Below, one piece after another: positions 2,282 through 48,400 of a stretch of 64,000 bases of DNA. The stretch comes from Pseudocercospora fijiensis CIRAD86 (Eukaryota > Ascomycota > Dothideomycetes > Mycosphaerellales > Mycosphaerellaceae). Under the pieces are notes generated by a model. That model did not search any database and was not told the DNA's origin. It saw only the letters and a program-made list of their open reading frames with translations. Positions within the stretch are counted from its first letter, which is position 1. Each line of letters opens with the position of its first letter. The position numbers and the translations under genes were made by a program. The stretch is from contig NW_006921535.1 of assembly GCF_000340215.1 (NCBI RefSeq), forward strand, positions 1,678,483-1,742,482, read 5' to 3'.

Positions 2282-4210
2282 ATGAGGTGGCCATCTTCCA
2301 TACTGACAGCCGGTATCAGCCTGCTGCGATGCACCTTCGCCTTCGCCCAGTCTTGCAACACCACAGTACTGCACGTCGATACACCAAGTCAAGGCAATGT
2401 GGTATTCAAAAGTTTCAGCTACTGCGGCGGCATCCTGAGCACTTCTGCATACATCAATAATCTTGCATACAACAAGCTGGTCAACCTCTATTTCACGAAT
2501 CGACAAGACCAAAGTACACCATTGACGTCGATCGGACTGCGCTACAACAGCAGTGTCGATGGCACGCCATACGAGCTTTGGGCATCAAGCACGCCTGTCT
2601 ACGTCGATGGCATCACGAAGCTTCTCAATATCACTTACGATGTAGTCGATACCGGAAGCGAATACAACCAGGTCCTCAATCTGGACGTTGTCGCGAGTGG
2701 TGCACCAGAGCCTACACTGCCTGGGCCACCACAACCTTACGCCACGCCGAAAGGCTTCAGTGACGACATCACCGATTTCCTCGAAGTGGCCAATGGCTCT
2801 CAACTTGTGGCCTCACTCAACAAGATGTTCGCGAACATCAATCCAGCTATCGAAGGAGCAGTCGATGGCGTGGTAGTCGCAGGACGAAGCGGACCATTCT
2901 TCGAATCGAAGCTGCCAGATTATGGATACGACTGGGTCCGAGATTCGTCCTTGACAATGGATGTCGTTCAGACTCTGTACGCAGCTGCTAACAACAGTAA
3001 CGCCAAGCAGCAATACGAAGCCATTCTCTTCCAGTACGCACTTGCTCGTGCCACAGAGCAGACCGCCCCAAACCTGCAGACTGGTTTAGGAGAGCCCAAG
3101 TTCTACCTGAATAATACGGTATACGAAAAGCCTTGGGGACGACCTCAGAATGACGGACCAGCTACAGCTGCAACCACGCTTATTGAATTTGCTGAGAGCT
3201 ATCTCGCAGCAGGTGGTAATCTTTCTACTGTGAAGGAGAAGCTCTACGATTCCGCTACTTATCCTGCAACCGCACCGATGCGGAAAGATCTGCTTTTCGT
3301 TGCCAGCAATTGGACTTCAGCCTCATTTGACTTATGGGAGGAAGAAAGTGCGGATCACTTCTACACGCGTATGGTGCAGCGTCGCGCTCTCGTCCTGGGC
3401 AGCAAATTCGCAGAGACTATGGATGACCATGAGACTGCGGCAACTCTGAAGTCTGCTCTTGATGCTCTGACTGCGACAATGAGCCAGTTCTGGGACGTCA
3501 ACCGAGGCATATTGCTGTACGAATACGGTCCAGTACTTCTCGGCAAGTCGAGCTATCTGGATGCTGCGGTCCCTCTTGGCCTCATTCATGGTTACGCGAA
3601 CGATACCGTTTTCAGCTACACCAACGACCAAGTTCTATCCACTGTCGTGCGCTTCGTCACCAGCTTCACCGAGACATACCCGCTCGCGAACAAAACGCAG
3701 ACAGATGGCTCCGGCCTGACTCTTGGTGTGCCCATTGGACGCTACCCCGAAGATGTGTACAATGGAACAGGGACCGAGGAGAACGGTGGAAATCCTTGGT
3801 ACCTCACTACTGCCGCGATCGCGCAGGTTATGTATGCCGCATCCGATGAGTACAACTCGGCCGAGAATCTCACCGTCACCAACACCTCGCTGAGCTTTTT
3901 CGAGTACTTCGTCCCAGATGCTGAGCTTGAAGTGGGCCAGACGTATGTCATCGACAGCCAGGAATTTTCAAAGGTCATCGGAAGCCTGAACGGTTGGGGC
4001 GATGCGTTCCTGCGAACTGTGAAGTACTATACGCCATCGGATGGATCTCTCGCGGAAGAGTACAATCGTGATGATGGCGTTCCGCAAGGCTGTGTCGACC
4101 TGACTTGGTCTTATGCGAGCATAATCACGGCTGCCATCCAGAGAGCTAAGACTAGGAACGAGGATGACTTTGTCCGAGACCTCGCCAATCTAGGCATCAC
4201 CCCCAATTAG
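2282..4210 (+). CDS. Secreted glucoamylase, CBM21-GH15
   Basis: Glucan 1,4-alpha-glucosidase of 642 residues that releases glucose from starch ends outside the cell. The ATG at 2282 starts a clear signal peptide (MRWPSSILTAGISLL, likely cut after FAFA); the longer upstream frame has no ATG and spoils the leader. Residues about 35-135 resemble the N-terminal starch-binding domain CBM21 of Rhizopus-type glucoamylases (YINNLAYNKLVNLYF motif). The GH15 catalytic domain follows: YGYDWVRDSSLTMDVV, the general-acid motif DLWEEE (E about 353), and the base region SLAEEYNRDDG (E about 592) before LTWSYA. Many N-glycosylation sequons fit secretion. CBM21 at the N-terminus, not the C-terminal CBM20 of Aspergillus enzymes, marks the Rhizopus/yeast-type lineage. 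No intron and no damage are seen. Confidence 0.9.
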   Translation: MRWPSSILTAGISLLRCTFAFAQSCNTTVLHVDTPSQGNVVFKSFSYCGGILSTSAYINNLAYNKLVNLYFTNRQDQSTPLTSIGLRYNSSVDGTPYELWASSTPVYVDGITKLLNITYDVVDTGSEYNQVLNLDVVASGAPEPTLPGPPQPYATPKGFSDDITDFLEVANGSQLVASLNKMFANINPAIEGAVDGVVVAGRSGPFFESKLPDYGYDWVRDSSLTMDVVQTLYAAANNSNAKQQYEAILFQYALARATEQTAPNLQTGLGEPKFYLNNTVYEKPWGRPQNDGPATAATTLIEFAESYLAAGGNLSTVKEKLYDSATYPATAPMRKDLLFVASNWTSASFDLWEEESADHFYTRMVQRRALVLGSKFAETMDDHETAATLKSALDALTATMSQFWDVNRGILLYEYGPVLLGKSSYLDAAVPLGLIHGYANDTVFSYTNDQVLSTVVRFVTSFTETYPLANKTQTDGSGLTLGVPIGRYPEDVYNGTGTEENGGNPWYLTTAAIAQVMYAASDEYNSAENLTVTNTSLSFFEYFVPDAELEVGQTYVIDSQEFSKVIGSLNGWGDAFLRTVKYYTPSDGSLAEEYNRDDGVPQGCVDLTWSYASIITAAIQRAKTRNEDDFVRDLANLGITPN

Positions 4211-4420: not shown

Positions 4421-5533
4421 TTACATTTTGCTTTCTCTTGGCTGTGGTCTGTTGTCATCTGATAGCAGATCACAGATCCAGCGCTCAGCCTCCCTACGCA
4501 TCAGCGCAGAGAACTGATGGCCAGCATCAGGATCTTTGATATCTTCAAGTTCAATACCTTGATCCCCAGCCCAGCTATCTTTAGCGATGCCTCGCTTGAG
4601 CCAAGTGAGAAAAGGTTCGCCTTGAACGTACGGGACAAGTCTGTCCTTCCCGCCACTTAAACAGATAATCTTCTTGCCAGCAAGAGTTTGCTCAATAATA
4701 TCTCGCAGGCGTTTCACTTCGTCTCGCGATGGTTCATGCTTGATATCCTCTGGAGAATAGACATCCAGCTCGCTCAGTAGTATTCCGGCTGGATCGAGTT
4801 GCTCCACGGCAGCGACGAGCGATTGCGGAAAATCTGGCGATCCTAGAAACTCCTGTCCCGGCGGATCTGTAGTCATGCAAGACCGCAGCTTTGCTCTTAT
4901 CGCTCGATCCGTCATCAGACGTACATAGTCTGGACAGCCCACCACAATCATCCCGGCTGTGATCCGCGGCTCTTTCATCAGTGCTATCCAACTCGCATGT
5001 CCGCCCAGACTCACGCCGCCGGCAATATTATCATTAATTTTGAACTCCAAATGCGACTCGATCTGCGTGATCAAAAGACTCAGATCATGCGCCGTACCAG
5101 AATAGGTCGCAAACATATGTTGTGCATGTTGAGGATTTCCCTGCTTCCAAGACAAATTATGATCGTTTTCAATCATCCTCGAGCCATGGTTTCTTTGATC
5201 ATAACATATGCATATCAAGCCTTTTCTGCTTCCCACCTGGGCTCTTTTCTGGTTCCATGCTTCGAGCAATGCTGCCGCGGTGTATGCCATGGAGTCTTGA
5301 GTGTCGCCGCGGCCGTGGAGGAGCCAGAATGCCGTGATTGATTCCGGGTGTCGCGGTAGTTCGTTCTTTCCGTAGACTGTGGTTAGGATACCGCCTACGT
5401 TGAGTCGCTGCCATGATACTGGCTTCACATTAGCGAAGGCTTGGTGGGTTTGGGGAAGAGGTGATTCGAATGGTGATTTCTTGGAGTCTATGCGAAGAGC
5501 GTGGCTCCACGTGTATGTGCTGCCGCCTGCCAT
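4421..5533 (-). CDS. Alpha/beta-hydrolase fold protein
   Basis: Protein of 370 residues starting at the ATG at 5533; the frame continues upstream but without an ATG. It shows the alpha/beta-hydrolase pattern: an oxyanion-region LLHGRGDT, a nucleophile elbow GVSLGGH (catalytic Ser), an acid candidate in SGGKDRLVP, and the catalytic His in DAGHQFS near the C-terminus. All three triad members are present, so it is probably active. No signal peptide is visible, so it is likely cytosolic. Family members act as esterases, lipases or C-C hydrolases; the substrate is not predictable here. It is convergent with the glucoamylase, about 210 bp apart. Confidence 0.8.
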   Translation of the reverse strand: MAGGSTYTWSHALRIDSKKSPFESPLPQTHQAFANVKPVSWQRLNVGGILTTVYGKNELPRHPESITAFWLLHGRGDTQDSMAYTAAALLEAWNQKRAQVGSRKGLICICYDQRNHGSRMIENDHNLSWKQGNPQHAQHMFATYSGTAHDLSLLITQIESHLEFKINDNIAGGVSLGGHASWIALMKEPRITAGMIVVGCPDYVRLMTDRAIRAKLRSCMTTDPPGQEFLGSPDFPQSLVAAVEQLDPAGILLSELDVYSPEDIKHEPSRDEVKRLRDIIEQTLAGKKIICLSGGKDRLVPYVQGEPFLTWLKRGIAKDSWAGDQGIELEDIKDPDAGHQFSALMRREAERWICDLLSDDNRPQPRESKM

Positions 5534-6726
5534 GCTGGAAATTTGTACAAAAGAATTGAAACGGGAAATGCTGGTGTTCAAGATGTGTTGATGTTTTCGG
5601 TCAACGCTCTCCGATCTTCGGTGGAGGCGTGTTGTTGCCGAGGCTTTGCTCTCGGGACAGCAACATCATCATTCTCGACAGACACCATCAATCCGTTCCT
5701 TACACTTCACTCACAACGATTTCCACAGTATCGGTATCAAAGCATTTCCCGCCAGGTCTGATGAAGGCGATACGGGCAGTACATCACACGTATGCCCAAC
5801 TTTCCATCAGCGGCTTTGACATGTGCAGGACGCGGGCAGAACGAGCCACTGCGGCCGCCTTAGGGCATCAGAACATATCGTACGCGATGTGCGTACTTCA
5901 TGCTTATATCCGGAGCGACCTATAGCATCTCTCTTGCCGACCTCGTTTGAGCAGCGCCCGGCCTGTCGGCACTTCCTGAAGACGAGGTACCAAGCGCTCG
6001 CTGTATTGATCCCAAATTGGTATCGATGGCGTTCAGATGAGCGAAGAATCCTTCTCACTTGATTGAACTGGGCAGGGAGGGTGAGATGTAAGAAACCATG
6101 AACAACATCCTTCAGCCTTTCAGCTCCTGCTCCTAAAGCTGTTCCTGTGATATGATACAAATGAGAAACGCTGCCAGATTTCGATTGCTCTCTGGATCGA
6201 AAACAATAAATGTGCTTCAAAGAGACGTTTTGACATTCTGTAGACGTGAAAGGAGTGAGGTTGACATAGGCGAGGACTATCAGCCAAAAAATATCGAAAA
6301 GAGCGAAACAATTACCATCAGCTCAGCGCCAATCACGGATTCAATTGAATGAATTAGAACTGAACAGTTATATGCATTTCATGATCTGCAAATTTTCGAC
6401 AGCCATTCATGGTTCAGCGGTAGAGTTATCTGTCAGTCACTCCTAATGCGGTGCTGGGTAGCCTCGGGTTGACATGCATGGCCTTTCGAAAGAAGACACA
6501 TCCTAAGAAAACGACCCTGCTGAAGCGTGGGCGGCTGTCAATTCTTTTGATTCCTTTGTGGGTAATCGGATCCTTCTTTCGAGTGAAGGTTCATGCTATG
6601 TTGACGACGATCTTTGCAATCATGACAACATGTCTCTCATGAACTCAACTTCAACATGTGGAAGATTAAGATTGTGCTGTCTATCTGTGCCTGGATTCCC
6701 ATCGCGCTGAAAACAGACGATCACGA
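5534..6726. other. Intergenic region
   Basis: About 1.2 kb of unique sequence between the hydrolase 5' end and the small minus-strand gene. I see no supportable gene. A stretch near 6410 resembles the A box of a tRNA promoter but lacks a matching B box and cloverleaf. Confidence 0.4.
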
Positions 6727-7143
6727 CTATTCCCTCCCGAGCAAACCCATGCCCTCAACCTCACCAAAATCTTTCGCTTTCACAACCAACTCAACCATTG
6801 CCTGCACTTTCACCATCTTCTCTGGCGCTTCTTGAACTTCACTCGAACTGAAGCCGACCTTCGTATCCTCTTCTCCAGGTCCAATTGGCCTGGGCTGCAT
6901 TCTGAGCACATTGCTCTCAGGTTGTTGCAGTACTGTGCACTGAATTGCAGTCACAGTGTGCTTTCCTGCCGCGATGCTGTCGTTCAATAGATTCGATATG
7001 GTCTGATGTGTGGCAAGTGACATTGCGGTTGCGTAGCTTCGTCGTGCTGACATGAGTGATGTCCTCAGTAATCGTGGTCCACATACTTGGGGGTTCATGG
7101 CGGCAGTAGCTCTGGCAAGGCTCGTCTTGAGAGTAGCAGACAT
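6727..7143 (-). CDS. Small hypothetical protein, possible mitochondrial presequence
   Basis: Protein of 138 residues, not recognised. The first 45 residues are rich in Arg, Ser, Ala and Leu and almost free of acid (for example LLRTSLMSARRSYATAMS), typical of a mitochondrial targeting presequence. The middle (THQTISNLLNDSIAAGKHTV) and the acidic, charged C-terminal half look like real protein. It starts at an ATG and needs no intron. Function unknown; it could be a fungal-specific mitochondrial protein or a chance frame. Confidence 0.45.
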   Translation of the reverse strand: MSATLKTSLARATAAMNPQVCGPRLLRTSLMSARRSYATAMSLATHQTISNLLNDSIAAGKHTVTAIQCTVLQQPESNVLRMQPRPIGPGEEDTKVGFSSSEVQEAPEKMVKVQAMVELVVKAKDFGEVEGMGLLGRE

Positions 7144-26855: not shown

Positions 26856-27971
26856 ATGCAATCTAAGGTATTATTATAGTTGTTCTACGCCTTCCTTAGC
26901 TACTACGCTACTATACTAGGTCGCCTACCCTCTAAGACCGCTAGACTCGTAGTAATATATTTCAACGACAATCTCAACGTTCCAACTATTGTCTCGAAGA
27001 TAGGAGTAAGTACGTCGACGATATATCGATAGCGGAAGTGTTACTAGCTATTTAGGGAGGTATATATACTAGATCCGGATCCGCCGGAGGTACCTAAACT
27101 AGGTAAGAAGAAGAAGGTTAAGAAACGCCGTATAAGGAAGATAACGAAGGAAATAGACGAGTAGTTACTAGAATACCTTAACGATCGACTAGATACTTAT
27201 CTTAAAGAGATATATATAGAATTATATAATAACTTCGGCGTAGAACTTTGCCCTTCGAGCGTATAGCGTACGCTTACTAATCGGCTCGAGTAGACTCGTA
27301 TAGTCGCTCGTTAAGTCGCGAAGGAGCGTAATCCGATAGTAAGAGCGATATAGTATATAAAGAGCTAGAATTAGCCGGTAGATAAGTTAATATTCCTTAA
27401 TAAGACAGCTTCTAATAAGAAGACTGCTTATAGGAAGTATAGATAGTCTCCGAAGGGCGTAGATTGTTACGACTTCTAGTGCGCTTAACACTAACGACGC
27501 CTATCTATATTACCGGCTCTAACTATTAATAGCTATCTTAAGTGTACTCTATATATAGAAGGCGCCGTAGATTAAGTTACATTCGATAACTAGCTCGAGA
27601 ATAAAGTAATGCCGCTAATTAAAGGCTAAGAGATAATATTTATTATAGATAATACGTCGATCTACTATAGTAATAGAGTTAAAGAGATAATAACGTTAGC
27701 CGGTTACAGATTAGAATACTTGCCGCTATACTCGCTAGATTTGAACCTAATAGAACAGACCTTTAATATACTTAAGAGGTAGATTAAAAAGCATAAGCGT
27801 ATATAGGAAGACTTTGAATGCTTTGCTAACTTTCTAACTTAGGCTCTTAAGTATATAGCTAGTATAGATATGCGTAGATTGTTCAAACATAGCGGTTATA
27901 ATATTAATAGAGTTGGCTTTAACGACGAAGCGACTAAGCTTAGCTTCGAGTTCGACAACCTATACCTCTAA
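26856..27971 (+). pseudogene. Tc1/mariner transposase, RIP-inactivated (Tc1-1)
   Basis: One continuous frame of 372 codons from ATG to TAA, broken only by TAG stops where Gln or Trp codons would stand. A helix-turn-helix N-terminus (VPTIVSKIGVSTSTIYR) is followed by the DDE core: FLNKTASNKKTAYRK (first catalytic Asp now Asn, a TpG-to-TpA change), IIDNTSIYYSNRVKEI (second Asp), and LPLYSLDLNLIEQTFNILKR (the PYSPDLNPIE-type motif with the third acid). Fungal Tc1-type element. I could not fix its terminal inverted repeats. Confidence 0.85.
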
Positions 27972-29895: not shown

Positions 29896-30022
29896 TGGTT
29901 AGAGAGTTAGAGCCTAAGGCATCGACAAAGCGGACTTAGCATGCTACGAGAGCCCCCTTCCGTACTTAGAACTTCTACCTCTCTACGTACCTATCGAATA
30001 TACAGTTGCTATCACACTTCTA
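29896..30022 (+). repeat. Gypsy-1 5' LTR (127 bp)
   Basis: Begins TGGTTAGAGAG and ends CACTTCTA; the terminal CA has become TA by RIP. Same length as the 3' LTR. Confidence 0.85.
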
Positions 30023-30499
30023 CTAGCGAGCAGCAAGGGGCACAAAAGTGCAATAGTTACCGGCATAGAATAGCAGGTGCAGCGGCAGCGACATATTTAG
30101 GCAGTTTTAAGGCATAGCGACAGGCGTTTAGTGCATACAGTTTAAGCGAGAAAACGAGATGATACAGCATCAGAATACGGCGTTAGAATACAGCATTTAT
30201 AGCATTAGTAATAGTATTAACAGTAACAGCATATTGAACATTATTTAGCATTAGCATCTTATAGCAACAGTATCGACCGGGCGTACGCATCGCCCTGTAG
30301 TATTATTTACAGAAGACACGAGTACAGCTTCAATAGTATACGTATATGTTAGAATTTCCCCTACCGAAGGCACGAGATATATAGGAAGCCCTATATTAGC
30401 GTAGACAGCGGCTTTACGTAAGCGGAAATCACCTACCGAGCCTACCCGTATTCGGTAGTAGTATACCGAGGAGCCCGATACGTCGAGAACGACCCGCTC

Positions 30500-33400
30500 C
30501 GACAGGAGGCTTAAGCAGGTTATATATGCCCGAGGAAGGCAGAAATAGGTAGAACTACATTAAAGGCACGCAGAAGGTCGTATAGAAGAAGCGTGCTAGT
30601 TAGGATCTTAAGAGCCCGGAATTAGCTAAGAAGATTGCCAACTTCAAAGGATTTTATAGTTAGGGTAATCCTACGGAAATACCTTATCGAACGAGCAGTA
30701 AGAGAGATTAGAACGAAGAGGACATTGAGCGGACTATCTATCGACAAAGCCTAATATTAAAAGCATCAAAGGTCTCGTCTAGAACCTTAGCAAACTCTCT
30801 ATTACTATAGAAACAGGCCGGCGGAAAGGAGTAGATTTATAGCGACAAGGAGGTTAATAGAATTCTCCTAAGGCTTAATCTACATCGCTAATCTCGCAGT
30901 ATAGGGCACATCAAGTTTCGACAGGTCTATAGAACAGCACGAAATTACTATAAGTACCTACGCAGTTGCGATAAGAAGAAGTGGGAGTGGGAATTTCAGA
31001 GGCGTTAGCGATTAGCACGGTAGAGATTACTCTCGGAGGGTTACATAGGACAACTAAAGGAAGCACTCGGGGACCTCGTAGGTACTAGAAAGTTCCTATT
31101 ACACTAGTATAAAGAGCTAAGTGAAAGGGGGCGTCCGCAATTACTACGGTCTTATCCCTTATCTAGAAGTGGCTCTCGGCGTTCTTCTAGGTCTTACGCT
31201 AATACTAAGATATATACACCGCCGTATTCGCTACCTAACTCTCCCTAGAGACAAGGCAGCAGACCTCCTTCTTTATCCGGATTATTAACATTATCGTTAC
31301 GCTTATTAATACTATTACTACTAGGAAGTCTACTAGTTCCTCCGCTACTAGCACTAAATATAGCGACCGGCGTAGCTAGCTTAGAGCTAGTTAGTATGTT
31401 TGTCGGCGAAGAAGTTAAGGGTGACGCAGAGCGTTAGTAGGATCGATTTAAGCGGCAATAGGATTAGGTTAATAGCAGAGCTAACCCAGTCCGGTAGTGC
31501 AAAGACTTTAATATATAGATAAAGGGCGAGGCAGTACGATAGGTTAATATAGAACTAAAGGACCTAGTATAGAGACCTCACGTTAATAACGCTACGGCGG
31601 TTACTATATAGACTATTAAGGATAGGTTCTTTGCGAAATAGTCAAACGCAGCATCGTTAGCTAATAACTCCGTCGAGACTATCGAAGCACTTACGGAAGT
31701 AGCATAGAAGAAAGATAAAGACCTAAGGGAATATTATTATCGTTGTACGGTCCTACTCCGCTAGGCAAACGGCAAAGATAATAACACCGCTACTAGTACT
31801 AAGCGTACTGTTCTTACTATCGCTATTAAGGGTTTCGTTAATAGCCTCGTAGACAAAAAGCTCCGTACCGAGATATAGCGCAAGAAGCAGTCTACCCTAA
31901 AGGCGATATTAGCGGAGGCGGAGGCGGCTTAGCGCCTTATTAAGGATAAGGAGAAGGCTAAGAAGGAACAGAGGGAGTATAAACACATAGAAGTGCTAAA
32001 GGAGGCAGCTATATATTAGTCGGTTAGTAAGCAGTTACTATATAACCTTAATCAACGCTTAAAGAAGTACTAAGATACTATAGAGCCTTATAATGCCGAT
32101 ACTAATATAGTATAGTCGACTCCGCCGGAAGCTAAGGATTAGTAGGGCTACCTATATCAATACAGCAATAGCTACTATTACTACGCCTTACCTTTACCGA
32201 CACCTTCTTAATAGCGCTCCCTATATATACTACCGAGGAATTAGGCCCCGCCGCTACTATAATAGCAAGCTTAGCAACTAGGGTATTAATAAGGACCTCC
32301 GTAGCAGTAGCGCTAGGGTTTCTAGTTACGCGCTCTACGCAACAATATAGGACTAGGTTATAGCGAGAACAACCTAATACTAGAATACTATTATGCGGCT
32401 GTGCGCCGTAGCCGTAAGCGTAATAGAGACGTCGACCTAACCTAGTCCTAGAATAGCTATATTAATAGTATAATCTAGTACCGATATAAGTTCAACAATC
32501 TACTATACTACGGGTATAGCTAGCGTAGACACCTTAAGCGTAACAATGTCTATACGGAAGATTAGCGACTAATGCTATAGGAGAGCAGGTTCCTTATATA
32601 TCTTATATAAGAACAACGAGAGGACTTCTTTGCTAAGAATCTAGGTACTAACCGAGGCGAGGGCAATCGAGGTAGATATAGTAGCGGTTATAGTAATAAT
32701 CGTAGGGGTTATAGCTTATATAGAGGCGGCCGTAGAGGTTATAGTAGCGATCGAGATTATAGCAGAACACCTCCTCCTAGGCCTCCGCTACTAAGCGATC
32801 GACTATTAAACGACGCGCGGAATAGTAACGCGCTATCGGCGGATGCTTATTACATCGAAGTGTTACTAAACTAGGATAGTACGAAGACACTAGAAGAGCT
32901 ACTTACCGCTATTACTATTATTAAGAAGAGTTAGAGCTAAGACGTCGATACGAATAAAGCCGAAGGATATAGCAATAGGGAGCCTACCGAGCCTACTAGT
33001 AATACGAATAAGAGGGTTCACTATAATAAGGAGGGCAACGGAGACACCGATATACTAAACATCCTAACTACACGAGTTATTAAGCCTATAAAGGCACGTA
33101 CCTCGAAGGTCGACAAAGGCGCTAAGCCTATAAAGCCTATTAACGGCCTCTTTAACGAACTACCGATTAAGGTAAAGAAGGTCCTTAGCAACCTAGAGAT
33201 CCGCTTACTAATCCTATAGCTTATATAGTAGTTACCGTTCTTCCGCAACCGGTATAAGTACCTCTTCTCGCAACTACGCTTCCGCGAAGCAGGTAAGCGT
33301 AAGGCTAAGAAGGCCGAAGAGGAAGATATAGCGGAGATAATAGAATTAGCCGAGAATAACAGCATTACGGTTACGGAGTTGTGCGAGATAGTACTACCCG
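30500..33400 (+). pseudogene. Gypsy-1 gag-like region, RIP-inactivated
   Basis: Coding remnant, mainly in the frame of position 31741. It holds a helical charged stretch (LRTEIQRKKQSTLKAILAEA from about 31,860, then Lys/Glu-rich) and an RG/RGY-rich basic stretch near 32,650-32,770 (NRRGYSLYRGGRRGYSSDRD) that probably binds RNA. A zinc knuckle may lie near 32,500, but its Cys residues are not all readable. Boundaries approximate. Confidence 0.6.
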
Positions 33401-33599
33401 AGACCGTTATAATAGAGGTAATAAAGGCTGTCTAGTTGTTAACTATAGCCGCTACCGGCCTCGGTAAAGGAATACCTATAGTTACCGCGGAAGATATAAT
33501 AAAGGAGTACTAGGTTAGCCTAAGTGCTACGATTAACGGCAATAGCAATAGCATTACCGTATAGGTATAGGCAAGTATTAGTAGCTAGCGCTAGCGGGA

Positions 33600-34320
33600 C
33601 TTAAAGACTAAGGCCTACTTATTGCCTATTAAGATCTATAACGCCGCGAGAGGAAGGGAGGTATAAGTACCTCGTACCTAGTATATTGCGGACTAAGGAT
33701 CAGATTTAAACGTTATCTACCTACACCTCCGCAAGGGTATAAAGCTACAGCTCTATTCGGTTAAGCTCCTTAGCTTTCCGTTACTTAATATAAAGGTCGC
33801 CGACGGAGGCTTAGTTAGTATTATACACTTCTCGACCTTCTACGTCGATATTAGAGGCGTTCGGAGGGACATATAGGCGATCTGCTACCCTAAGGGACGT
33901 AGCAACCTCTTACTTATTCTCGGTTTAGCGTTCCTAGACTAAGTTAACGCTGTTCTACGCGTTAAAGATAGAGCTATAGAAGTTAGAGATACTAGCATTA
34001 GGGAGTAGGTCGTCCGTATTAAGATAATACTAAAGTATAGCGACCTACCGAAGTTTATAATAGACATTTAGGACTTAATAAGTCTAGGAGAAGTAAAGGA
34101 AATAGAAGAGCGTAGTAGCGATAAGGAGGAAGAGGATAATATAGATATAGAAGAGCTAAACCGTAATTTAGAAGAGATAGACCTTAGTAATATAAAGGTA
34201 ACTAGTAGGAAGGGCTAGGCTTTTTACTAAGTCCTTAGTATAACAAGAAAAGGCTTACTACTAATATAAATACTAACTATAGCGTCGACGTTAATAGCGC
34301 CGAGCTACGACAGAAGGAGA
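33600..34320 (+). pseudogene. Gypsy-1 aspartic protease
   Basis: Asp-protease remnant: the active-site motif reads D-stop-GSDLNVIYLHL at 33,691 (an original DQGSD-type motif with Gln turned to TAA), followed by LLLILGLAFLDQVNAVL at about 33,910-33,955, the second conserved hydrophobic-Gly motif. The frame is the same as gag and -1 to the polymerase. Confidence 0.7.
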
Positions 34321-34346
34321 GCTTTAGAGAAACACTAGGGCTAGAG

Positions 34347-34379
34347 TTAGGGTTAGGGTTAGGGTTAGGGTTAGGGTTA
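34347..34379 (+). repeat. TTAGGG tract inside Gypsy-1
   Basis: About five and a half uninterrupted TTAGGG units, the canonical fungal telomere repeat, preceded by degenerate units. In the pol frame they read as Leu-Gly repeats. They lie where the gag-protease frame gives way to the RT frame. Confidence 0.9.
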
Positions 34380-36494
34380 TACCCTAAGGTGGATAATGGC
34401 ATTTCTCGAAGAATTAGGCCATTTAGAGCATATAAGGTCTCGGAGGCAAAAGGCGATTACGTAAGCGATAACTCCAACCCTAACCCTTACCCTAAGCGAT
34501 ACTACGACGTTTCCGAAGGAACCTGCCGCTATAGTACCGAGTACTTCTGCTTCCGATATTAGCTAGTAGAAACGATCGACAATTATATAGTCTAAAGTAA
34601 CAGCATCGGTACCGAGACTTCTACCTATAAGTACCCCGTTACTCGCCGAGTCGAACGCCGAGAAATCGATACAAGTAAGAATCTCGTAGGACTAGAGGAA
34701 TAGATTAGTACGAAGGAGATTAAGCTTAGCTCTTTAATACCTAAATCGGATATACTAGAAGTCCTTTAAGTCTTATAGACCTATCGCGACCTAGAGGCAC
34801 TTAGATAAGGAGATCTCGGACCTACTATAGACCTAATATAGTACCGCACGATCTTAAAGGAAGGTACGTAGGTCTTCCGCGCTAAGCTAAAGCGAATAAG
34901 CGCGGACAAGGAATAGTAGCTAATTAAGTATACTACGGAAGGTCTCGAGAACGGCCTCTTTAAGAGTATAGTAACGGCTAACGGAGAGATTAGTAAGTAG
35001 AATACTAACTGCGTTATCGTTGCTAAACTAGGCAAACTACGCCTATGCCTTACATTTAATTATTATTATATATAGGAGTAAGAGAGCGGCGAACAGATGC
35101 AGCTAATAAAAAAGAGCTAAGAGTTCCTTAGCAACCCGACCTATAGATGCTTCTCGAAGTTTAACATTAAAGACGCATACTAGACAATATCGATTTACCC
35201 TACTAATAGGCATCTCCTAGCATTCTATATACCTACAATCGGACAACTGCAACCTATATGTATACTAATAGGCGCAAGGTCTTCGAGCTTTACTATAAAC
35301 GAATACGGCAACGTAGCATTCGGAATAATACCTCTACTAGACCCGGAGCCCTCGCTTATCGCTGTCGACATAATAGTCGGCTTAGACTAGGAACAGCAGC
35401 TGCCTTATATAACCGTTTATATCGACGATATCTTACTAGCGCACCGAGACTAGAGCACCTAGTAGCCCTTCATTCGAGATTACCTCTTCCCTCGCTTAGC
35501 ATTCGTAAAGATAAAGCTATCCTTCCGGAAAGTGTATATTAGCTTTAACGAGTTAGAGATGCTTAGAGATATATACAAATCGGGTAGACGTAAGGCATTG
35601 AAACTAGTAAGAGTATAGAAGATCCTCGACTAGCTAGTACCGTAGAACGCCTATAACGCACGAAGGTTTAACGGCATTGTTAACACTGCGCGCGAATACG
35701 TTAAGAATATAGGAGAGGTTATAATACCTATTCGGCGGCTAATAAGCGACAACCTAGAAGATTAGTAATAGAACGAGGCTGCTTAGCTAAGCTTTAACCT
35801 AGTAAAGAAACAGGTGGCATCCGTAGTAGAACAGTATAGACATAACCTAACACTACCGTATAAGATGTACTTAGATGCTTCTACTAAGGGTATAGGCTGC
35901 TTTATCCGACAGAGGCAGGAGGTTACTTACAATAGTAAGACAACTAGCAAATAGGTACCTATCCTATACGATACCTATCTCTTTAGCAAGACCGAACGCA
36001 ACTACGGCACCTACAAGCGAGAACTAAAGTCAATCGTTTATTTTATCGGCAAATACACCTATATATTCTAAGGACCTATTACTTCTGTTATCTATACGGA
36101 CTATAAGCCTATTACTAGCTTTATTAACGCTTAAGCAGATAGGATCTACGCACGCTAGCAAGACGCCCTTCGATAGCACAATATCTGTATCGAGTATATC
36201 GAAGGCCCTTGTAACGTAGTAGCAGATGCGCTGTCTCGTACGATCTTCGAAGACGACAATAAACAGGACCTTAACACTAAGACTATCGAACTAAGGAAGG
36301 AGTTAGACGCACATAACAATAATGACTTATAGATATAGAAAGATAGCAAAGGAGGCTTTAACGAGACGTTAAATAAACTTTTCGGCAGGGGGGAGAGATA
36401 CGAGAAATATATACTTAGCAGCATCGAATCAGCAAGCAAGAACAATACTGCGTACGAGGAGGTTAATACTAACAATACACGAGTTGTCGTAACC

Positions 36495-36542
36495 TGTAGG
36501 ACCTGCAACACTCGTATTAAAGGCGACAAATGCGACACCTGC
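36495..36542 (+). pseudogene. Zinc ribbon in Gypsy-1 pol
   Basis: In-frame CRTCNTRIKGDKCDTC: two CxxC pairs eight residues apart, all four Cys preserved despite heavy RIP. It lies directly before the NADAR domain and probably binds zinc, perhaps for nucleic acid or protein contact. Confidence 0.75.
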
Positions 36543-36593
36543 GGCAACGCTATTAATCGACAACTAGGGCCTATATATTTCTAGCAACTATAG

Positions 36594-37041
36594 CCTTATA
36601 GCTTCCTTTCTTAATAGTATATCCTTAGCAACAATATCGAATACGAGGGCCTCACATTCAATACTGCTAAACAGTTTATAATAATGCGGAAAGCAGAGAT
36701 TTATCGTAACTTCGAGACCGCCGCTAAGATTATAAACGCTAACAACCCTGCTAAACAGAAGCTACTTGGCCGCACGGTGCGCGGGTTACGATAGCAACCG
36801 GCGATCTAGAATAAACACCGAGAGGCTATTGCGGAACAAGGCAACTACCTAAAGTTTAAAGCAAACCCTAGGCTACTAGAATCTCTTCTAGGCACTAGTG
36901 ATCGTAAACTTGTAGAGGCATTACTAACTGATCGAATATAGGGCATTAGGTTTGAAGGATATAAGGCCGATAGGATAAGGGAATATTAGGGTTTGAATCT
37001 GCTTAGTAAGGCACTTATGCGCGTAAGAAGTCGGCTAAGGA
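36594..37041 (+). pseudogene. NADAR domain (YbiA/DUF1768-like) within Gypsy-1 pol
   Basis: About 149 codons in the pol frame. Readable family signatures: PYSFLS followed by two stops at a QW position, then Y (the FLSQWY-type start); TFNTAKQFIIMRKAEIY, where the usual Glu (TAEQYMM-K) is Lys through a TpG-to-TpA change at 36,669; KIINANNPAKQKLLGRTVRG; NYLKFKANPRLLESLLGTSD; KLVEALLTDRI-stop-GI, matching LVEAS-x-DRIWGI with TGG turned to TAG; and GLNLLSKALMRVRSRLR, matching the N-LGKALM-VR end. NADAR proteins cleave N-glycosidic bonds of ADP-ribose-like compounds. No part is missing, so the ancestor was probably functional. Confidence 0.82.
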
Positions 37042-39219
37042 AGGAACAAGAGGAGGAAATGGTAATAGGGCCAACTAACAATATTAGTGTCGAAGAACTA
37101 CTACTATAGATACCCTTTAGTGAACCTAAACGATTAACCGAGGGAACAACAATAAAGGTGCCTATCCTAGACTGCCTAGAGATCGGGCACGAGATTCTTT
37201 GCGTCTATAAGAACGGCGATCCGAGTTAGATATGCTATAATCCCTACTATAACTACCCTTGTTGCAAGGCGCCGAATCTTATACCGGGGAGGCTATTAGA
37301 TAAGGACTTGGCGCTTACTAAGCAATAGTACGGCGACATTGTAAGATATTACAAATATTAGCAGATCCCTCAAATCTAGACTAAGGCCGTCTATAGGAGC
37401 TTTAAGACTATTACCGCTAGCTATCGATACAATATAGCAATAGGCATCCTATAGAGATACATCGTTACGGATCGGATTAACAAGCGACGAATCCTAGTAC
37501 TATGCTTGTTACTATACGAGATTGTGCTATTGCTACAAAAGCTACACGATGAAGTAGGATACTTTAATAAGCGCATCGTTTACTAGAAGCTTATTAACCG
37601 AGTGTTCTAGCTAGGCATATATAGCGACATTATTAAATACGTTAAAGGCTGCTTCTATTGCGCTCTTTAGAGACTAGCTAACCTAACACACCTATACAAG
37701 GTCTTCTATACTCTGCACCCTAGTGAAGTCGTCGAGATTGATCTAATAGGACCGTTTCCGCCTAAGCGCATTAGAGTTAGTAGGAGACCGTATCGATATT
37801 TGCTTATAGTCGCTAATGTCTTCTTACGCTTTAGCGAAGTAAAGCTATTAGAAGATAAGGAGACCGAGACTGTATACATAGCACTAGATAAGGTCTTTAA
37901 CGCTTCTACGGACCCTATAGTAGCATTCTATAACCCCGGCACTGAGTTTGCAATAGTAGCGGAGCACCTTCGACAGGATAGGGGCATCTACGCAATGCTA
38001 GGGCCTGCAGGAAGTAAGCGACTTACTAGCTCCGTAGGGGTATTAAACCGAGTCATTCGTCGATTACTTAAGCGCAACAACAATAGTTACCTAATAGACC
38101 TAAATAGACACCCGATTAAGCAACTTAGCGGCTGGGTTACTAATGCTATTAAGGCAATAAGGTATGCTAATTACAGGCACATTGAGGGCATCGGATATTT
38201 ACCTGCGGAGATTAAGTTAGGCCTCCGACCGGAAGAGCTTAGTAACAAGGCCGATCTCTATCCTTCCGTACGACGATAGGAATTAATCAACGTATTAGAA
38301 GGCGTTAAAGAAGCTAATATAGCAATAGTTGATTTAATTAATAATAAGCCCGAAATCGACGTTAACGCTACTACTACGAGTTAGTAGCTAAAGGTGCTAT
38401 GCACTAGCCTCTTTAATATACTAGAACACCTTACAACCCGGCATCGCGTACACTCGGAAGTGCGCCGCCGCAGCAAGGCAGCATCAGCTAAGCGCATTAG
38501 ACGTCTTCATCGGTCTATAAACACACATCCTATAATTGGGCCTAGTAATCTTGTCCTTCTTAAGAATTAGTCAATCCGTTAAAAGAGTTAGCAACCATCC
38601 TAGACTAGCCTCTTCCGCGTTAAACAATTAAGCGATAATATAGACAATGCTTTCGAGCTGCAGACTGTTAATAGAACCAAGTCACTATAGGGCCTATATT
38701 ATCGTAAGCATTTGCAGAAGTTTACGCCTAGAAGTAGATATCTAGCAAGACAGCAGATCGACACACTAGAAGGGCTTCCGTAGCCGCGCATACTGCACCT
38801 AAAGAAGGCTACGAAGAAGGCAGAAGCACATTACCGATTCAACCTACGCAATAACACTTAGTAACTAACGATCGAGCGACACCTCCGAGACCTCTACAAT
38901 AGTTACCTATTACCTATATCGACCGACCTTCCTAGCGTACGACTTTACGCGCTCCGCAACTCATTACCTACACTCGCTTACTAAGCATCAATACAAGAGC
39001 ATAGACATATAGATTGACTTAGAGTTATAGTTAGAGATACAGATTAGACATAGTAACTAGCATATTACTAGCGTAAGAGACTGATTTGTATAATACCCTA
39101 GGGACTGATTAGCATATAAATAATCTTCTTTTATGTGATCTACCGTTGTAACGGGTAGGATATTAGACAAGGCAATAGCGACACTGTATCGCAGGCTCTG
39201 CGACTTATAGTTAGGGGAG

Positions 39220-39346
39220 TGGTTAGAGAGTTAGAGCCTAAGGCATCGACAAAGCGGACTTGGCATGCCACGAGAGCCCCCTTCCGTACTTAGAACTTCT
39301 ACCTCTCTACGTACCTATCGAATACACAGTTGCCATTACACTTCCA
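39220..39346 (+). repeat. Gypsy-1 3' LTR (127 bp)
   Basis: Begins TGGTTAGAGAG after a purine tract and ends CACTTCCA. Differs from the 5' LTR at six sites, five mutated in the 5' copy and one in the 3' copy, all in RIP context. Confidence 0.87.
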
Positions 39347-39352: not shown

Positions 39353-42300
39353 TAGTAAGGAGATAGATATAGAAACCTAGCAGGCTATACTATAGGAGGA
39401 TAGGGACCTAATATTAGTTTAAGTAGAGATATCCTAAGGTATACTCTAAGTCTACTATATATACAACCCACTACTAGACTTAAGAAGTAGTACCTAACTG
39501 AAAACCCTAGAAAGACTACCTAGAGTTATCTAGGGGAACACCTACTAAATCCTACTTAGGGATTTCAACCTCTACTACCCCCTCTAGGGCTTAGACTTTA
39601 CCCTAGCTTACTACTTCCTAGCAGGAAGACTAATTAATATATTAGAGAGGGAAGGAATAGAAATTGTTACCCTAAAGGGACTAATTACTTAGGAAGCAAG
39701 AGGAAGCAGTAGCATACTAGATCTATACTTTGCATTATATTAGATTAGGAACAGGATTATAAGATACAGGGTTAACTAGGAGCTAGAAGAATCATTAGAC
39801 TACTTCCCGGTACAGATTAAGCTAAATGTCTAAGCTAATTAGGAAAGGGAACTAGAGGAGAAGCTTAACTAGAAAGGTACCTAATAGGACAGGATTAGGG
39901 AGGAACTAGAAAGGGACCTAAAACTAGAGGAACTCTTAACAAAGTACCTCCTAAGGCTAGAGGACATTGATAAGGCAGTAGAAGAACTAATAGGAATCCT
40001 AAAACAGGTAGCTAGAAAGCATACCCTAGCAAAGAAATATTTACTGTACTAGCAACTATACTAGACTAGTAAGTGTATAGAGAAGGTTAAAGCAGCAAGG
40101 AAGGCTAGGAGGTAGTAGATACAAACCTATATCTAGGAAGTATAGGACAACTATAACAAAGCCTACTAGGAAAAGAAGATCTAGATTAAGAAGGATAAGA
40201 TACAAGAATAGAGATCTATAATAGGAATAATTACAAAGAAACTAGAGGAGATATAGAGGATAGCTAAATAGGCAAGGAGACCTAAATAGGATAAAGATAT
40301 ACTACTACAATTCCCGGATATTATAGACTAATAAGGACAAATGCAGACTACAATAGAAGGGAAAGCAAGAGCCCTAGGCTAACACTTCTTCTATAGAAAA
40401 GTATAAGCAGACCTATTAGACATAAAGGAGAAAGAACAAGAGACTCTACTACTAGGCATACTAAGAGACACCTAGGTCAAACCCGAAACTATTAAAAGGA
40501 TCCTAAAGAAAATTCTAGGCAATAAGGCACTAGGAGAAGATAAGATCTATAATAAACTTCTAAAAGTATATAGGAAGGGGCTAGCCCTAGTACTAGCCAA
40601 TATCTTTTTATAAAGCCTAGCACTAGGACACTACCTAAGACTATTTAGGAAGTCCCTAACAGTAGTACTAAGGAAGCCCTAGAAGGAAGACTATACGTAG
40701 CTTAAGGCCTATAGACTAATAGCCCTACTTAATACAATAGGTAAGGTGCTAGAAAAAATTGTCGCTAAAAGGCTAACAACCTTTACCGAGGAAAGGAACA
40801 TCCTTCCTAAAGGCTAGATAGGAGGAAGAAAGAAGAGGTCAATACTAATAGCTATAGAACTAATTATAGAACAGATCAAGCATATCTAGTACTATAGTTA
40901 AAACTAGGTAGCAACCCTCCTCTCCCTTAATATCTTAGGAGCCTTTAACAATGTCTCCTATAAAAGGCTCCTATATATACTTAAATAGAAGGCTACACTA
41001 AACTGGATAGTCTAATTTATCTAGTCCTTCCTATAGGAAAGGTTAATATAGCTTATTCTAGGCAAATTCAAATCCGACCTAATACTAACTAAAAAGGGAA
41101 TCCCCTAAGGATTAACACTCTCCCTAATCCTCTTCCTTATCTTTATAGCAGACCTACTCCTACTCCTAGAATTAAGAAACATATTAGCATTAGGGTTTGT
41201 AGATAACACAAACATCCTAGCCTAGTCTAAGACAACAGAAACTAACTATAAGATCCTAGAAGAGAAGCACTAGGAGTATAAAAAATAGGCAAAGAGATAT
41301 AGAGCAAAATTCGCCCTAGAAAAATACTAGCTTATCTACTTTAGTAAGGCTAAATCAACCTACAATATAAAGCAATTAATCACTATCTAAGGCTTTAAAA
41401 CCCAACTATTAGCAGAGCTTAGGGTACTAGGGATCTAGCTAGACCTAAAACTGAATTAGGGACTACAAGTAAAGAAGGCAAAGCAGAGGGCAGATGCTAA
41501 TATACAATCCATTAATAGGCTTATAGCCTCTATATAGGGGGCTATATTCGAGAAAGCCAAAGTTATATACAAAGCAATTGTTAAGCTAGCAATGCTATAT
41601 AGAGCATAGATATAGACAGCCTAGGAGAAAACACTAAAGAGGATCGAGTAACTAGTTAGTAGGTCCTAAACCTAAGGCCTAAAGAAAATCCTAGGAGCAT
41701 ATAAAACTATACCTATAAGGGTAGTGGAAATAGAATTAGGGATCCTACTAGTTAAACAATACTTTAAGGGACTAAGACACTAATATATAGCAAAGACAAT
41801 AGAATACCTAGCCTAACAGACTATCTAAAAGGCACTAGACAAGATAAAAGCCTAGTGCATTAGGACTAGGAGGCGAGATAGACTATAAATAACTCCCTAG
41901 AAAGTTAAAGACCTAGAGTACTATAGAGTCTTAATAAGAGAAATGCTAGAGAAAGAGCTTTAGGGACTAAATATAAGGCTAAAGGAAGACAAACTAAAGA
42001 GAGAGAAACAAAGCCTAGCAGAATCAATAGCTAGATATCTATAGGAGCAGGAATAGAACAAAACATAAGCTAGACTAGGAACCCTAAAGGCACTAATCAA
42101 ATTTGGTTAATATAACTACTAGCTCTACAAGGACCTAAATAGGGCCGAAGCAAGCCTAGCTATCTAAATTAGATCTAAACACATTGGATTTAGATCTTAC
42201 CTATTTAGAAGAAACGTCCTAGGAATTAAAAGCAGGGCTTGCTAATATAGCTACTAATCTTAGAACCCTAAGCATATACTACTAGTCTGCCCTTAATAGT

Positions 42301-44829: not shown

Positions 44830-46460
44830 GGTTTAAGAAGGAGGCTAATCTCGAGCCTGTCGTTTAATCTACGCCGCCTTTAATAAAGCCTCCGGACCGC
44901 GACCGACAGCTACCTATATATAATATCGTCAAGCTAAGTTAGATAAAGGAAGCACGTCGCCCTCGCCGCCGTAAGGAGCTAGTAGCATCTATAGAAGACG
45001 ATATTCTGCTCGATGCCGCTACTAGAAGCGATAGTAAGGAAGGCTCTATAGCGGTAAATAAGGAAGGCTCTACAGCGGTAAACGAGGAAGGCTCTACAGC
45101 GGTAAACGAGGAAGGCTCTATAGCGACTAACGAGGAAGGCACTGTTGCCGCTAATGAAGAAGACTATATAGAAGGCGCTAAAGAAGATAAGGATATAGAA
45201 CAATAGTAAGAGGTAGTCGATTAGACGCTGTCGCTTCTATAGACTATCTCGTATAGCCGCGATACGCTCGCTAGTAAGCCGCAGAAGATCTCTTCGGATA
45301 ACGATAGTGCTAAGCATAGAGACCTTTAGTCCGAGTAGAAGCGTAGTTAGTAGACAACGCTTAATATAACGAGTGAGACCTTCGAGAAGAATGTACGCTT
45401 TAAGACTATTGCGAAGGCTAGTCGTTGTCCGACTTACCTCGAGACTACTATAACTAGGGGGTCTATTCGAAGGGCTCTTAAACAACTGGAAGAATAGCAC
45501 TAGGCAGGCAAGAAGGGCCTTCTTCTTCAGTTAAAGGTTATATTAACTAAGAAGCTACTACTACTAAAGACTCTAGCAACGGCGGCAGCGACAACTAATA
45601 CTCCGCGTTAGAATATAGCTATATAACAAGCTCTGCGTAAATTGAGGGCCTCTTAGGCGGCTGCTAGCAGCGAGAACGACCTAGACCTAAATAATGAGAT
45701 AGACAACGACGACACGCCTATACCGAGCGGTAACTATCGCAGTGCCTTACATAATCGATAGGCCTATATAGACTAACTTTGTAAGAATTATAGCGGCCAC
45801 TATTAGATTAATGGCAAGAAGCGGTACGAGAACTACGTCAAAATAGGCCCTAATGCTATAATTAGATAGGCTAAGCTTATTCGAATAGGCCAATTCCGAG
45901 CGGACGTGCTAGTAGTCACTATAAGCCGTCTAGGTAAAGAGATAGTTAGCAGGTTAATAAGACAGAAGGCCCGTAAGGACAGCAATAGCAATCCATTTGC
46001 AACTAAGGCCCGCGCTATAGATAGCGCTATAGGGGTTGTAATATACAACCATCTCGGCGGTTACAGTAAGGGCGGCCCTATAAAGAAACGACGTACTTCC
46101 GAGTCTAGTCTAGTTAGGTCAAGCACTATAGCTCCTTCTAGTCCGATTATAGGTAAACCTAGACATATAGTAACGCCGCCGGACGTCTAATTGCTAGTGT
46201 TCTTTAACTAGTTAAAGCGATAAGACCGTAACGGCTAGCGAAGCCGCAAAACTGATATTCGTATAATCTACGACGCTCTAAGTATAAGAGACTATAGCCT
46301 AGACTAATTGGCAACTATGCCGCACTCTAGGTAGATAGAATAGGGTTTAAAGGATAGCTAATACGGTCGGCTAATGTATGTGTTGCGTAAGTACGATAAG
46401 AACGAGCGATCGCTATAGGAAGAGTTATTTTAGAACGGTGGCGCGTAGACTGCTATAAGT
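44830..46460 (+). pseudogene. Element X, plus-strand coding unit (no family recognised)
   Basis: Frame-preserved relic of roughly 530 codons, head-to-head with the minus-strand unit. An acidic N-terminal part holds the EGSTAVNE repeats (45,040-45,155). Basic stretches follow (KKGLLLQLKVILTKKLLLLK), then KNYSGHYQINGKKRYENYVK and RLGKEIVSRLIRQKARKD near 45,780-45,985; codons 45,906-46,190 are open. The end has DIRIIYDALSIRDYSL and YGRLMYVLRKYDKNERSL. I recognise no domain. Stops are nearly all TAG/TAA at Gln/Trp positions, as in the transposons, so the source was multicopy. Confidence 0.45.
45040..45155 (+). repeat. 24-bp coding minisatellite in element X
   Basis: About five tandem copies of a 24-bp unit (GAAGGCTCTACAGCGGTAAA plus four bases) encoding EGSTAVNE and variants; in-frame, acidic, probably a disordered linker. 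Confidence 0.85.
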
Positions 46461-47439: not shown

Positions 47440-48400
47440 CTACGATAACCGCACCTCTAGAACTACCCTGCTACGTGCTTAGTAATACTGTTGCTGCTGA
47501 CCTCTATAATAGCATACTTAACGAAGTAGCCGAAGTTCTCGAAGACAGCGTATTCCTCGAAATGGTGTTTGATCCAGCTCTTTAGGCTTGCGAATAAGAT
47601 CTTAATTAGGTTGTAATCTAGCGAGTATAGCGGCAAGTACTTAAGGTTAATACCCGCTGCGGCGTAGAGGTCTTTAACGCGTTAAGAACGATAGATAGGC
47701 GCGTTGTCTATTACAATCCACTAACCTAGACCGCTGAGCTGAGGAATAACGGTAAACTCGAGCTAGTATTCGAATATAGCGGCAGTAATAGATCCTTAGA
47801 TATAGAGGGTGCCTTCGAGATAACTACGCGAGGTTATTGCTAGTAGGACACTCTACCTCTTTAAGCGCTTAGTTGAGCCGTTATACTCGTATAGTTTATT
47901 AACCTACGAGTATCTAGTCTTCCGCTATCTAGTGCGCTTATTCGTACTACTCTTATCGACACAATATATCTTATCCGGGTCCTTGCCTTATTGCTACTCT
48001 TCGAAGTCCTCACGTAACTCCTTATTGCGCTCGAGAGCCCTGCGCTAATACACCTTCTTCGTCTATTTGTTGCGCTTTAGCGTACGAGAGACCGTCGACT
48101 AACTAACAACTACATCGAATATATTATACAGATACTAGATAATCTCGTCTTAGTAGGCGCAAGGATAGCTATCGAGGAAGTCGAGAATACGCTAACACTA
48201 CTATTATTAGCTACGGTCGCGATTTTCTACCAAATATACATACCTGCTTATATAATAGTCGCAATACGCGCTTCCGACCGAGTCGACTCAAATCGCGTAG
48301 GTACGGCACACTAAACAGCTCGTACGTATTATGGATCTTGTCGACAGTGCGCCTAGACAGGTTCAGCCATAAGGAGATCTCATTGTTCGAGAGATTGGTA
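47440..48400 (-). pseudogene. Tc1/mariner transposase, RIP-inactivated (Tc1-2)
   Basis: Minus-strand relic of a different Tc1-type family from Tc1-1. HTH region LSNNEISLWLNLSRRTVDKI; DDE core with VDKSSTNKRT (first Asp kept), WIVIDNAPIYRS (second Asp) and LPLYSLDYNLIKILFASL (PYSPDYNPIE-type motif, third acid lost), then WIKHHFEEYAVFENFGYF. Interrupted by RIP stops. Ends not determined; the right side meets unique sequence near 48,560. Confidence 0.8.

What the first reader, a model, noticed from the sequence alone, without database searches (positions are those of the whole stretch)
36483..37041. Ty3/Gypsy retrotransposon carrying an in-frame NADAR domain and zinc ribbon
Seen: in the Gypsy-1 pol frame, between RNase H and the integrase finger, there is a CxxC-x8-CxxC ribbon followed by a full-length NADAR-like domain (TFNTAKQFIIMRKAE, LKFKANPRLLESLLGTSD, GLNLLSKALMRVR). 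The frame is continuous from RT through integrase apart from TAG/TAA at Gln/Trp positions, so the domain belonged to the polyprotein and is not a later insertion. Known: NADAR proteins (YbiA family) hydrolyse N-glycosidic bonds and some reverse ADP-ribosylation of guanine in nucleic acids. Inference: the element may have carried an eraser of host or rival ADP-ribosylation of its RNA/cDNA, a counter-defence not usually listed for LTR retrotransposons.
Basis: partly seen in the sequence, partly recalled or inferred. Interest (0 to 1): 0.9.

Follow-up and report, generated by a model that had tools for sequence, protein, structure and literature searches.

The report
Fungal Gypsy retrotransposons carrying NADAR enzyme
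A stop-riddled retrotransposon in a fungal genome carries, inside its replication polyprotein, a NADAR domain that two related element families also hold and that appears to have been kept by selection; it likely let the live element strip ADP-ribose tags from its own RNA or DNA copy.

Summary
Window 36591-37040 matches Pfam NADAR (PF08719, E 3e-28, over the cut-off), preceded by a CxxC-x8-CxxC ribbon, in one frame with RT, RNase H and integrase of a 9.45-kb Ty3/Gypsy element (127-bp LTRs, CTATAT target duplication). It is no stray insertion: 9 of 9 family A copies found carry it between RNase H and integrase, and the 3 copies of diverged family B carry it before integrase (one has no RNase H hit). 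In the single family C copy found, ribbon-NADAR lies between protease and RT. Transversions, which RIP does not make, fall mostly on third codon positions within NADAR, as in a selected protein. A, B and C form one clade in the RT-RNase H tree (100/99) and the NADAR tree (99/97). The nearest public relatives lack NADAR. This fits one capture, then a move of the module. NADAR in a Gypsy Pol is already published for Ectocarpus (PMC12477816), so this is a new variant of a known kind. Removal of ADP-ribose from guanine is inferred: four ligand-site residues are kept in 13 of 13 copies, but one catalytic Glu reads Lys in all nine A copies, and all 13 NADAR copies hold in-frame stops.

The parts
29896..39346 (+). 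whole Ty3/Gypsy element, family A copy, flanked by CTATAT on both sides
   Evidence: LTR pair and flanks; domain order
29896..30022 (+). 5' LTR, 127 bp, TG start; 121 of 127 bases as in the 3' LTR, the 6 differences all transitions
   Evidence: the LTR sequence also found in 8 of 8 other family A copies
31801..33300 (+). gag by position (frame start mod 3 = 1)
   Evidence: alignable in 8 of 8 other A copies; no Pfam match
33601..34230 (+). protease by motif D-x-GSDLN (motif recalled), same frame as gag
   Evidence: no Pfam match
34347..34376 (+). (TTAGGG)5 run at the protease-RT junction, family A only
35103..35540 (+). reverse transcriptase (part matched by RVT_1)
   Evidence: PF00078 E 1.4e-4, below cut-off
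35850..36146 (+). RNase H
   Evidence: PF17917 E 1.6e-13, over cut-off
36495..36542 (+). zinc-ribbon-like CxxC-x8-CxxC
   Evidence: sequence; aligned in A, B and C, with Tyr at many Cys places
36591..37040 (+). NADAR domain, in the pol frame
   Evidence: PF08719 E 3.0e-28, 2.1e-29; 8bau E 6e-10
37527..37667 (+). integrase H2C2 zinc finger
   Evidence: PF17921 E 1.9e-6, over cut-off
37671..38276 (+). integrase core, no stop inside
   Evidence: position and alignment with other copies; no Pfam match in the window
39220..39346 (+). 3' LTR, 127 bp, TG...CA, preceded by a purine-rich tract

Best explanation
The window holds a stop-riddled Ty3/Gypsy element whose pol frame carries a CxxC ribbon and a NADAR domain between RNase H and integrase, and in the live element this domain would likely have removed ADP-ribose from guanines of the element's own RNA or cDNA. 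Shown: the domain, its frame, its recurrence in families A, B and C at two places in Pol, and a codon pattern expected of a selected protein. Inferred: an ancestor captured a fungal-type NADAR gene once; the ribbon helps hold the enzyme on nucleic acid; protease frees it so that it is packaged with RT and integrase; there it undoes ADP-ribosylation laid on the template by a host or rival enzyme, so that reverse transcription and integration can go on. The stops now seen fit RIP.
For: NADAR over Pfam's cut-off in A, B (L009 E 1.9e-29) and C (L018 E 3.5e-24). In 11 of 12 A/B copies RH, NADAR and IN are in one frame in this order; the 12th (L014) keeps NADAR-IN. Transversions in NADAR favour codon position 3 over 2 in 9 of 9 pairs tested, p < 0.05 in 8 of 9. 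The A-B rates .186/.134/.334 are like those of the integrase core .199/.185/.335 and unlike the linker .235/.201/.283. One clade in the RT-RH tree (100/99) and the NADAR tree (99/97). Equivalents of K50, K75, R79 and R93 of the solved NADAR are kept in 13 of 13 copies, E43 in 4 of 4 B and C copies (roles from PMC11543638 section 12). NADARs of several classes, including one eukaryote, remove ADP-ribose from guanine (same paper, passages).
Against: E43 reads Lys in 9 of 9 A copies, E125 reads Lys in 8 of 13 copies, and two Trp positions are stops in 13 of 13; RIP could have made these, but activity of the live enzyme is then a guess. Within family A the constraint on NADAR looks weaker than on RT or integrase (88 of 532 transversions at position 2, against 0 of 358 and 0 of 266). 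No writer is known: no DarT, one PARP-type hit only. NADARs can act on other substrates; YbiA works in riboflavin metabolism (PMC11543638 passage).
Confidence: 0.42

Rival explanations
1. The domain acted as a reader, not an eraser: NADAR would bind ADP-ribose on host chromatin or proteins and tether the integration complex there, as chromodomains do in other Gypsy elements.
For: It lies beside integrase in A and B. Ligand-contact residues are kept in 13 of 13 copies, while E43 reads Lys in 9 of 9 A copies.
Against: In C the module is far from integrase, before RT. The E43 and E125 losses are of kinds RIP can make, and B and C keep Glu at E43.
Confidence: 0.2
2. The domain worked as an N-glycosidase on small molecules or as an ADP-ribose or NAD sensor with no direct role on nucleic acid.
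For: YbiA of E. coli cleaves N-glycosidic bonds of riboflavin intermediates (PMC11543638 passage); profile match to YbiA 2b3w (E 4e-7).
Against: Little reason for a retroelement to keep a metabolic enzyme in Pol; the ribbon next to it suggests a nucleic-acid partner (inference).
Confidence: 0.15
3. A passenger: host sequence captured by the polyprotein and carried along without use.
For: No copy found here is open; constraint looks weaker than in RT within family A.
Against: Position-3 bias of transversions, presence in two families whose NADARs are about 50% identical, and relocation as a unit with the ribbon.
Confidence: 0.06
4. A later insertion of a NADAR gene into this one element, or an assembly artefact.
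For: The region is nested and repeat-rich; more distant relatives lack NADAR.
Against: Same place and frame in copies on contigs C2, C3, C4, C7, C11 and C23 (and before integrase on C16). The two host genes are 40-47% identical over the part matched and branch elsewhere.
Confidence: 0.02

Closest known systems
Ectocarpus Gypsy lineage with YbiA-family NADAR in Pol, e.g. Gypsy-12_Ec32 (PMC12477816, passages read)
   Same: Ty3/Gypsy; NADAR inside Pol and conserved in a lineage. Family C here has NADAR at the start of the pol frame, as described there.
   Different: Fungal host; A and B have NADAR between RNase H and integrase; CxxC ribbon in front of it (the passages read mention none). There blastp of the domain found almost only bacteria; here the nearest proteins found are mostly fungal. 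Sequences were not compared.
Crassostrea gigas Tx1 LINEs with NADAR in ORF1 (PMC12477816, passages read)
   Same: A retroelement with NADAR.
   Different: Non-LTR element, in ORF1, not in Pol.
Fungal Gypsy proteins P0001-P0007 (four named: Annulohypoxylon, Cordyceps sp. RAO-2017, Podosphaera aphanis twice)
   Same: Nearest proteins in the search; same RT-RH group and same W-x-WKDG motif after RNase H.
   Different: No NADAR at E up to 1. From that motif to H2C2 they have 115-173 aa (six of seven; P0007 ends before), the window 395.
NADAR hydrolases: P. nicotianae NADAR 8bau, E. coli YbiA, DarT1-linked NADAR
   Same: Same family by profile; four ligand-site residues kept in 13 of 13 copies.
   Different: Those are free-standing proteins or toxin partners; DarT1-linked ones use Asp where 5 of 13 copies here have Glu and 8 have Lys.

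Membership tests
Ty3/Gypsy LTR retrotransposon | Paired LTRs with target-site duplication | tested here: met
   127-bp LTRs, CTATAT on both sides
Ty3/Gypsy LTR retrotransposon | Pol order PR-RT-RH-IN | tested here: met
   RH and H2C2 over cut-off, RT below it; PR by motif only, integrase core by alignment only
NADAR superfamily (PF08719) | Profile match over the gathering score | tested here: met
   104.5 bits against 35.1
NADAR superfamily (PF08719) | Catalytic and ligand residues E43, K50, E125 (P. nicotianae numbering) | tested here: inconclusive
   K50 in 13 of 13; E43 in 4 of 13 (Lys in 9 of 9 A); E125 in 5 of 13; all copies altered in the manner of RIP
NADAR superfamily (PF08719) | Hydrolysis of ADP-ribosyl-guanine | not testable with these tools
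   needs an enzyme assay
[quoted passage not shown]
   A and B have it between RH and IN; the one C copy does have it before RT
Ectocarpus-type NADAR Gypsy | Common descent of element and domain | not tested
   no Ectocarpus sequence was compared
DarTG1 antitoxin NADAR | Catalytic Asp at the E125 position and a DarT partner | tested here: not met
   Glu or Lys in 13 of 13 copies; no DarT match in the genome

The most novel reading that the evidence does not exclude
A clade of fungal LTR retrotransposons turned a captured ribbon-NADAR enzyme into a movable Pol module that erased guanine ADP-ribosylation from its RNA and cDNA; fungi or their parasites would then mark retroelement nucleic acids with ADP-ribose as a defence, and the elements carried the counter-defence.
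Probability: 0.27. Interest if true: 0.87.

Novelty: new variant of a known kind. Interest (0 to 1): 0.63.

Why it matters
Roles of eukaryotic NADARs are unclear (PMC11125620, passage). A retroelement clade that appears to have kept one under selection, at two places in Pol, points to a substrate in the retrotransposition cycle, and makes it testable whether eukaryotic cells ADP-ribosylate retroelement RNA or cDNA. With the brown-algal and oyster cases in print, repeated recruitment becomes the thing to explain.

Tried and rejected
Stray insertion or artefact: rejected by recurrence in frame. Recent capture from this fungus's own NADAR genes: not supported; L001 groups with P0036 (Pseudocercospora fuligena) and L004 with P0101 (P. 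musae), not with the element clade. Gag in the pol frame (my note): wrong, corrected; one search had scanned gag in the wrong frame, and in the right one found nothing for gag or protease. A protein search with the window piece alone found nothing at E 0.001 among 1322 candidates; with ten copies aligned it found 35 at E 1e-5 among 7996 scored candidates, none with PF08719 in the precomputed list; I scanned 8 of the 35 myself. Viral contigs: no relative of the RH-IN piece; 4 NADAR matches, not followed up. Three rows of the alignment were out of frame; replaced. Family C's integrase: not found in the 6 kb fetched downstream; a 279-base assembly gap follows RNase H. Tree results against the reading: (134 rows, quick) gave only SH-aLRT 89 for the element branch; (59 rows: 8 of 13 element copies, 51 others, every third listed protein plus chosen ones, P0097 and P0063 left out as long branches) gave 99/97. 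One search (with P0010, end branch 7.7, and a joined row) gave 91/75; without both gave 100/99. Many element rows fail the composition check, so RIP may add to the grouping. Literature: searches (20 of 104 papers listed; 20 of 22,058 listed) showed no report of NADAR in a fungal Gypsy. PMC13041039, PMC4981473 and PMC10799480 were searched for the word NADAR, without a hit; PMC3562529 was searched for other terms only. The species (probably Pseudocercospora fijiensis: 73.9 Mb here, 74.1 Mb in PMC4981473; nearest host proteins from Pseudocercospora) is inference.

Full report
What was checked. The window is G000:C4:1678483-1742482 of a 73.9-Mb genome in 30 contigs. The NADAR claim is right: PF08719 matches 36591-37040 at E 3.0e-28 in the genome search and at E 2.1e-29 in the Pfam scan with X at each stop. 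The solved NADAR 8bau matches at E 6e-10; a profile of eleven NADAR rows (ten element copies and one host gene) matches 8bau at 2e-24 and E. coli YbiA 2b3w at 4e-7. The ribbon (CxxC-x8-CxxC, 36495-36542) is plain in the window but is only a weak Pfam match, and no other of the 13 copies keeps all four Cys.

The element. LTRs of 127 bp lie at 29896-30022 and 39220-39346; 121 of 127 bases agree, the six differences are transitions, and CTATAT stands on both sides. RNase H (PF17917, E 1.6e-13) and the H2C2 finger (PF17921, E 1.9e-6) are over cut-off; RT is below it (RVT_1, E 1.4e-4) and the integrase core gave no Pfam match. Gag and protease, named by position and motif only (one search found no Pfam match), are in one frame and RT-RH-ribbon-NADAR-IN in another. 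[quoted passage not shown]

It is not a solo insertion. One search lists 18 NADAR matches in the genome (counts are lower bounds). Three rows are two host genes (L001; L004 in two exons), nine are family A, three family B, one family C, and two (L021, L022) are weak remnants. In 11 of 12 A/B copies RH, NADAR and IN are in one frame in this order; the 12th, L014, keeps NADAR-IN but has no RT or RH hit. A search of the same genome with the integrase core gave 18 matches (a lower bound): the best 12 are these 12 copies. The other six are fragments or distant relatives without a NADAR match better than E 0.3 in the 1.5 kb fetched on each side. One of them, L039, has RH and H2C2 in one frame 144 aa apart and no NADAR between.

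The module also sits elsewhere. In L018 (family C) the order is protease (3552-4103), degenerate ribbon (about 4568-4615, one of four Cys left), NADAR (4676-5131), RT (from 5372) and RH (6371-6823). NADAR, RT and RH are in one frame, protease in another. The stretch after RH shows no ribbon before an assembly gap. So ribbon-NADAR opens the pol frame in C and stands between RH and IN in A and B. This is one copy only.

Descent. The nearest public proteins P0001-P0007 (four named, all fungal) belong to the same RT-RH group but show no NADAR at E up to 1. In the RT-RH tree the seven NADAR-bearing rows (4 of 9 A, 2 of 3 B, C) are one side of a branch at 100/99, in 100% of 200 bootstrap trees, apart from P0001-P0007, L039 and five outgroup rows. 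An earlier version, with the long row P0010 and a joined row, gave 91/75. In the NADAR tree the eight element rows are one side of a branch at 99/97 among 59 rows, and lie in a supported set with 20 standalone proteins when 8bau is included; a larger, quicker tree gave 89. The standalone proteins came from a search whose query held a host gene, so that they are mostly fungal is partly built in. None of the 120 listed has a CxxC...CxxC ribbon. The simplest reading is one capture of a fungal-type NADAR, gain of the ribbon, and a later move within Pol. Two captures are not excluded, and RIP-altered composition may add to the grouping.

Selection. RIP makes transitions, so transversions were counted alone. 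In NADAR they fall on codon positions 1/2/3 as follows (all nine pairs run): window-L009 27/19/51, L011-L017 29/22/43, L018-window 39/23/60, L018-L009 38/32/55, window-L011 8/5/15, window-L013 2/3/12, L010-L011 7/5/14, L009-L017 1/0/13, L009-L014 1/0/11. Position 2 against 3 has p < 0.05 in eight of nine (L010-L011: 0.064). Pooled A-B rates are .186/.134/.334 for NADAR.199/.185/.335 for integrase core.134/.095/.270 for RT.120/.109/.279 for RH and .235/.201/.283 for the linker; pooled pairs are not independent. So NADAR was constrained while the families lived. Within A the constraint looks weaker in NADAR (88 of 532 transversions at position 2) than in RT (0 of 358) or integrase core (0 of 266).

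Active site. Against 8bau (residue roles from PMC11543638, section 12), the equivalents of K50, K75, R79 and R93 are kept in 13 of 13 element copies. E43 is Glu in 4 of 13 (three B, one C) and Lys in 9 of 9 A copies. E125 is Glu in 5 of 13 and Lys in 8. D130 is Asp in 2 and Asn in 11. W89 and W133 are stops in 13 of 13. The losses are of kinds that RIP can make, so what the live proteins had is not known; B and C give the better case for an enzyme.

What is known. [quoted passage not shown] gigas, and suggests a role in processing RNA intermediates. The searches showed no report of it in fungi. The kind is known; the host group, the ribbon, the place between RH and IN, the two places within one clade and the selection test are what this adds.

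How it most likely works. As a predicted NADAR hydrolase tied to a ribbon and made in step with RT and integrase, it would ride in the particle and remove ADP-ribose from guanines of the template (inference). The writer is unknown: no DarT match was found and one PARP-type match was. I put 0.42 on this and 0.2 on a reader role.

Noticed in passing
window 34347-34376; same place in L010, L011, L012, L013, L015, L016, L019, L020: All nine family A copies carry a telomere-type (TTAGGG) run of 3 to 6 units at the protease-RT junction, the number varying between copies; B (L009, L014, L017) and C (L018) have none.
   Followed up: partly
L001, C7:3765378-3765836: The host NADAR gene in a GC-rich stretch, 80% identical to the Pseudocercospora fuligena protein P0036, has two in-frame TAG codons: a host pseudogene or assembly error.
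   Followed up: no
L021 (C11:1403139-1403411) and L022 (C17:595382-595843): Two weak NADAR remnants without a clear element of their own; L022 has another Gypsy RNase H about 2 kb upstream in another frame, L021 lies near a Helitron-like domain.
   Followed up: partly
window 40683-41357: A stop-riddled non-Gypsy-like reverse transcriptase (RVT_1 E 1.1e-18) begins about 1.3 kb after the 3' LTR; the class was not tested, it looks LINE-like.
   Followed up: no
window 27530-27849 and 47507-47826: Inverted pair of about 320 bp, 61% identical, on either side of the element.
   Followed up: no
window 45013-45171: Tandem array with a 24-bp period, five overlapping copies.
   Followed up: no
L009 2067-3386 and L014 2788-4306: Two of the three family B copies hold internal tandem duplications, in L009 across RT-RH and in L014 where RT-RH should be.
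   Followed up: no
L042-L045 (IMG/VR contigs): Four viral contigs encode NADAR proteins 34-40% identical to the profile's first sequence; context not examined.
   Followed up: no
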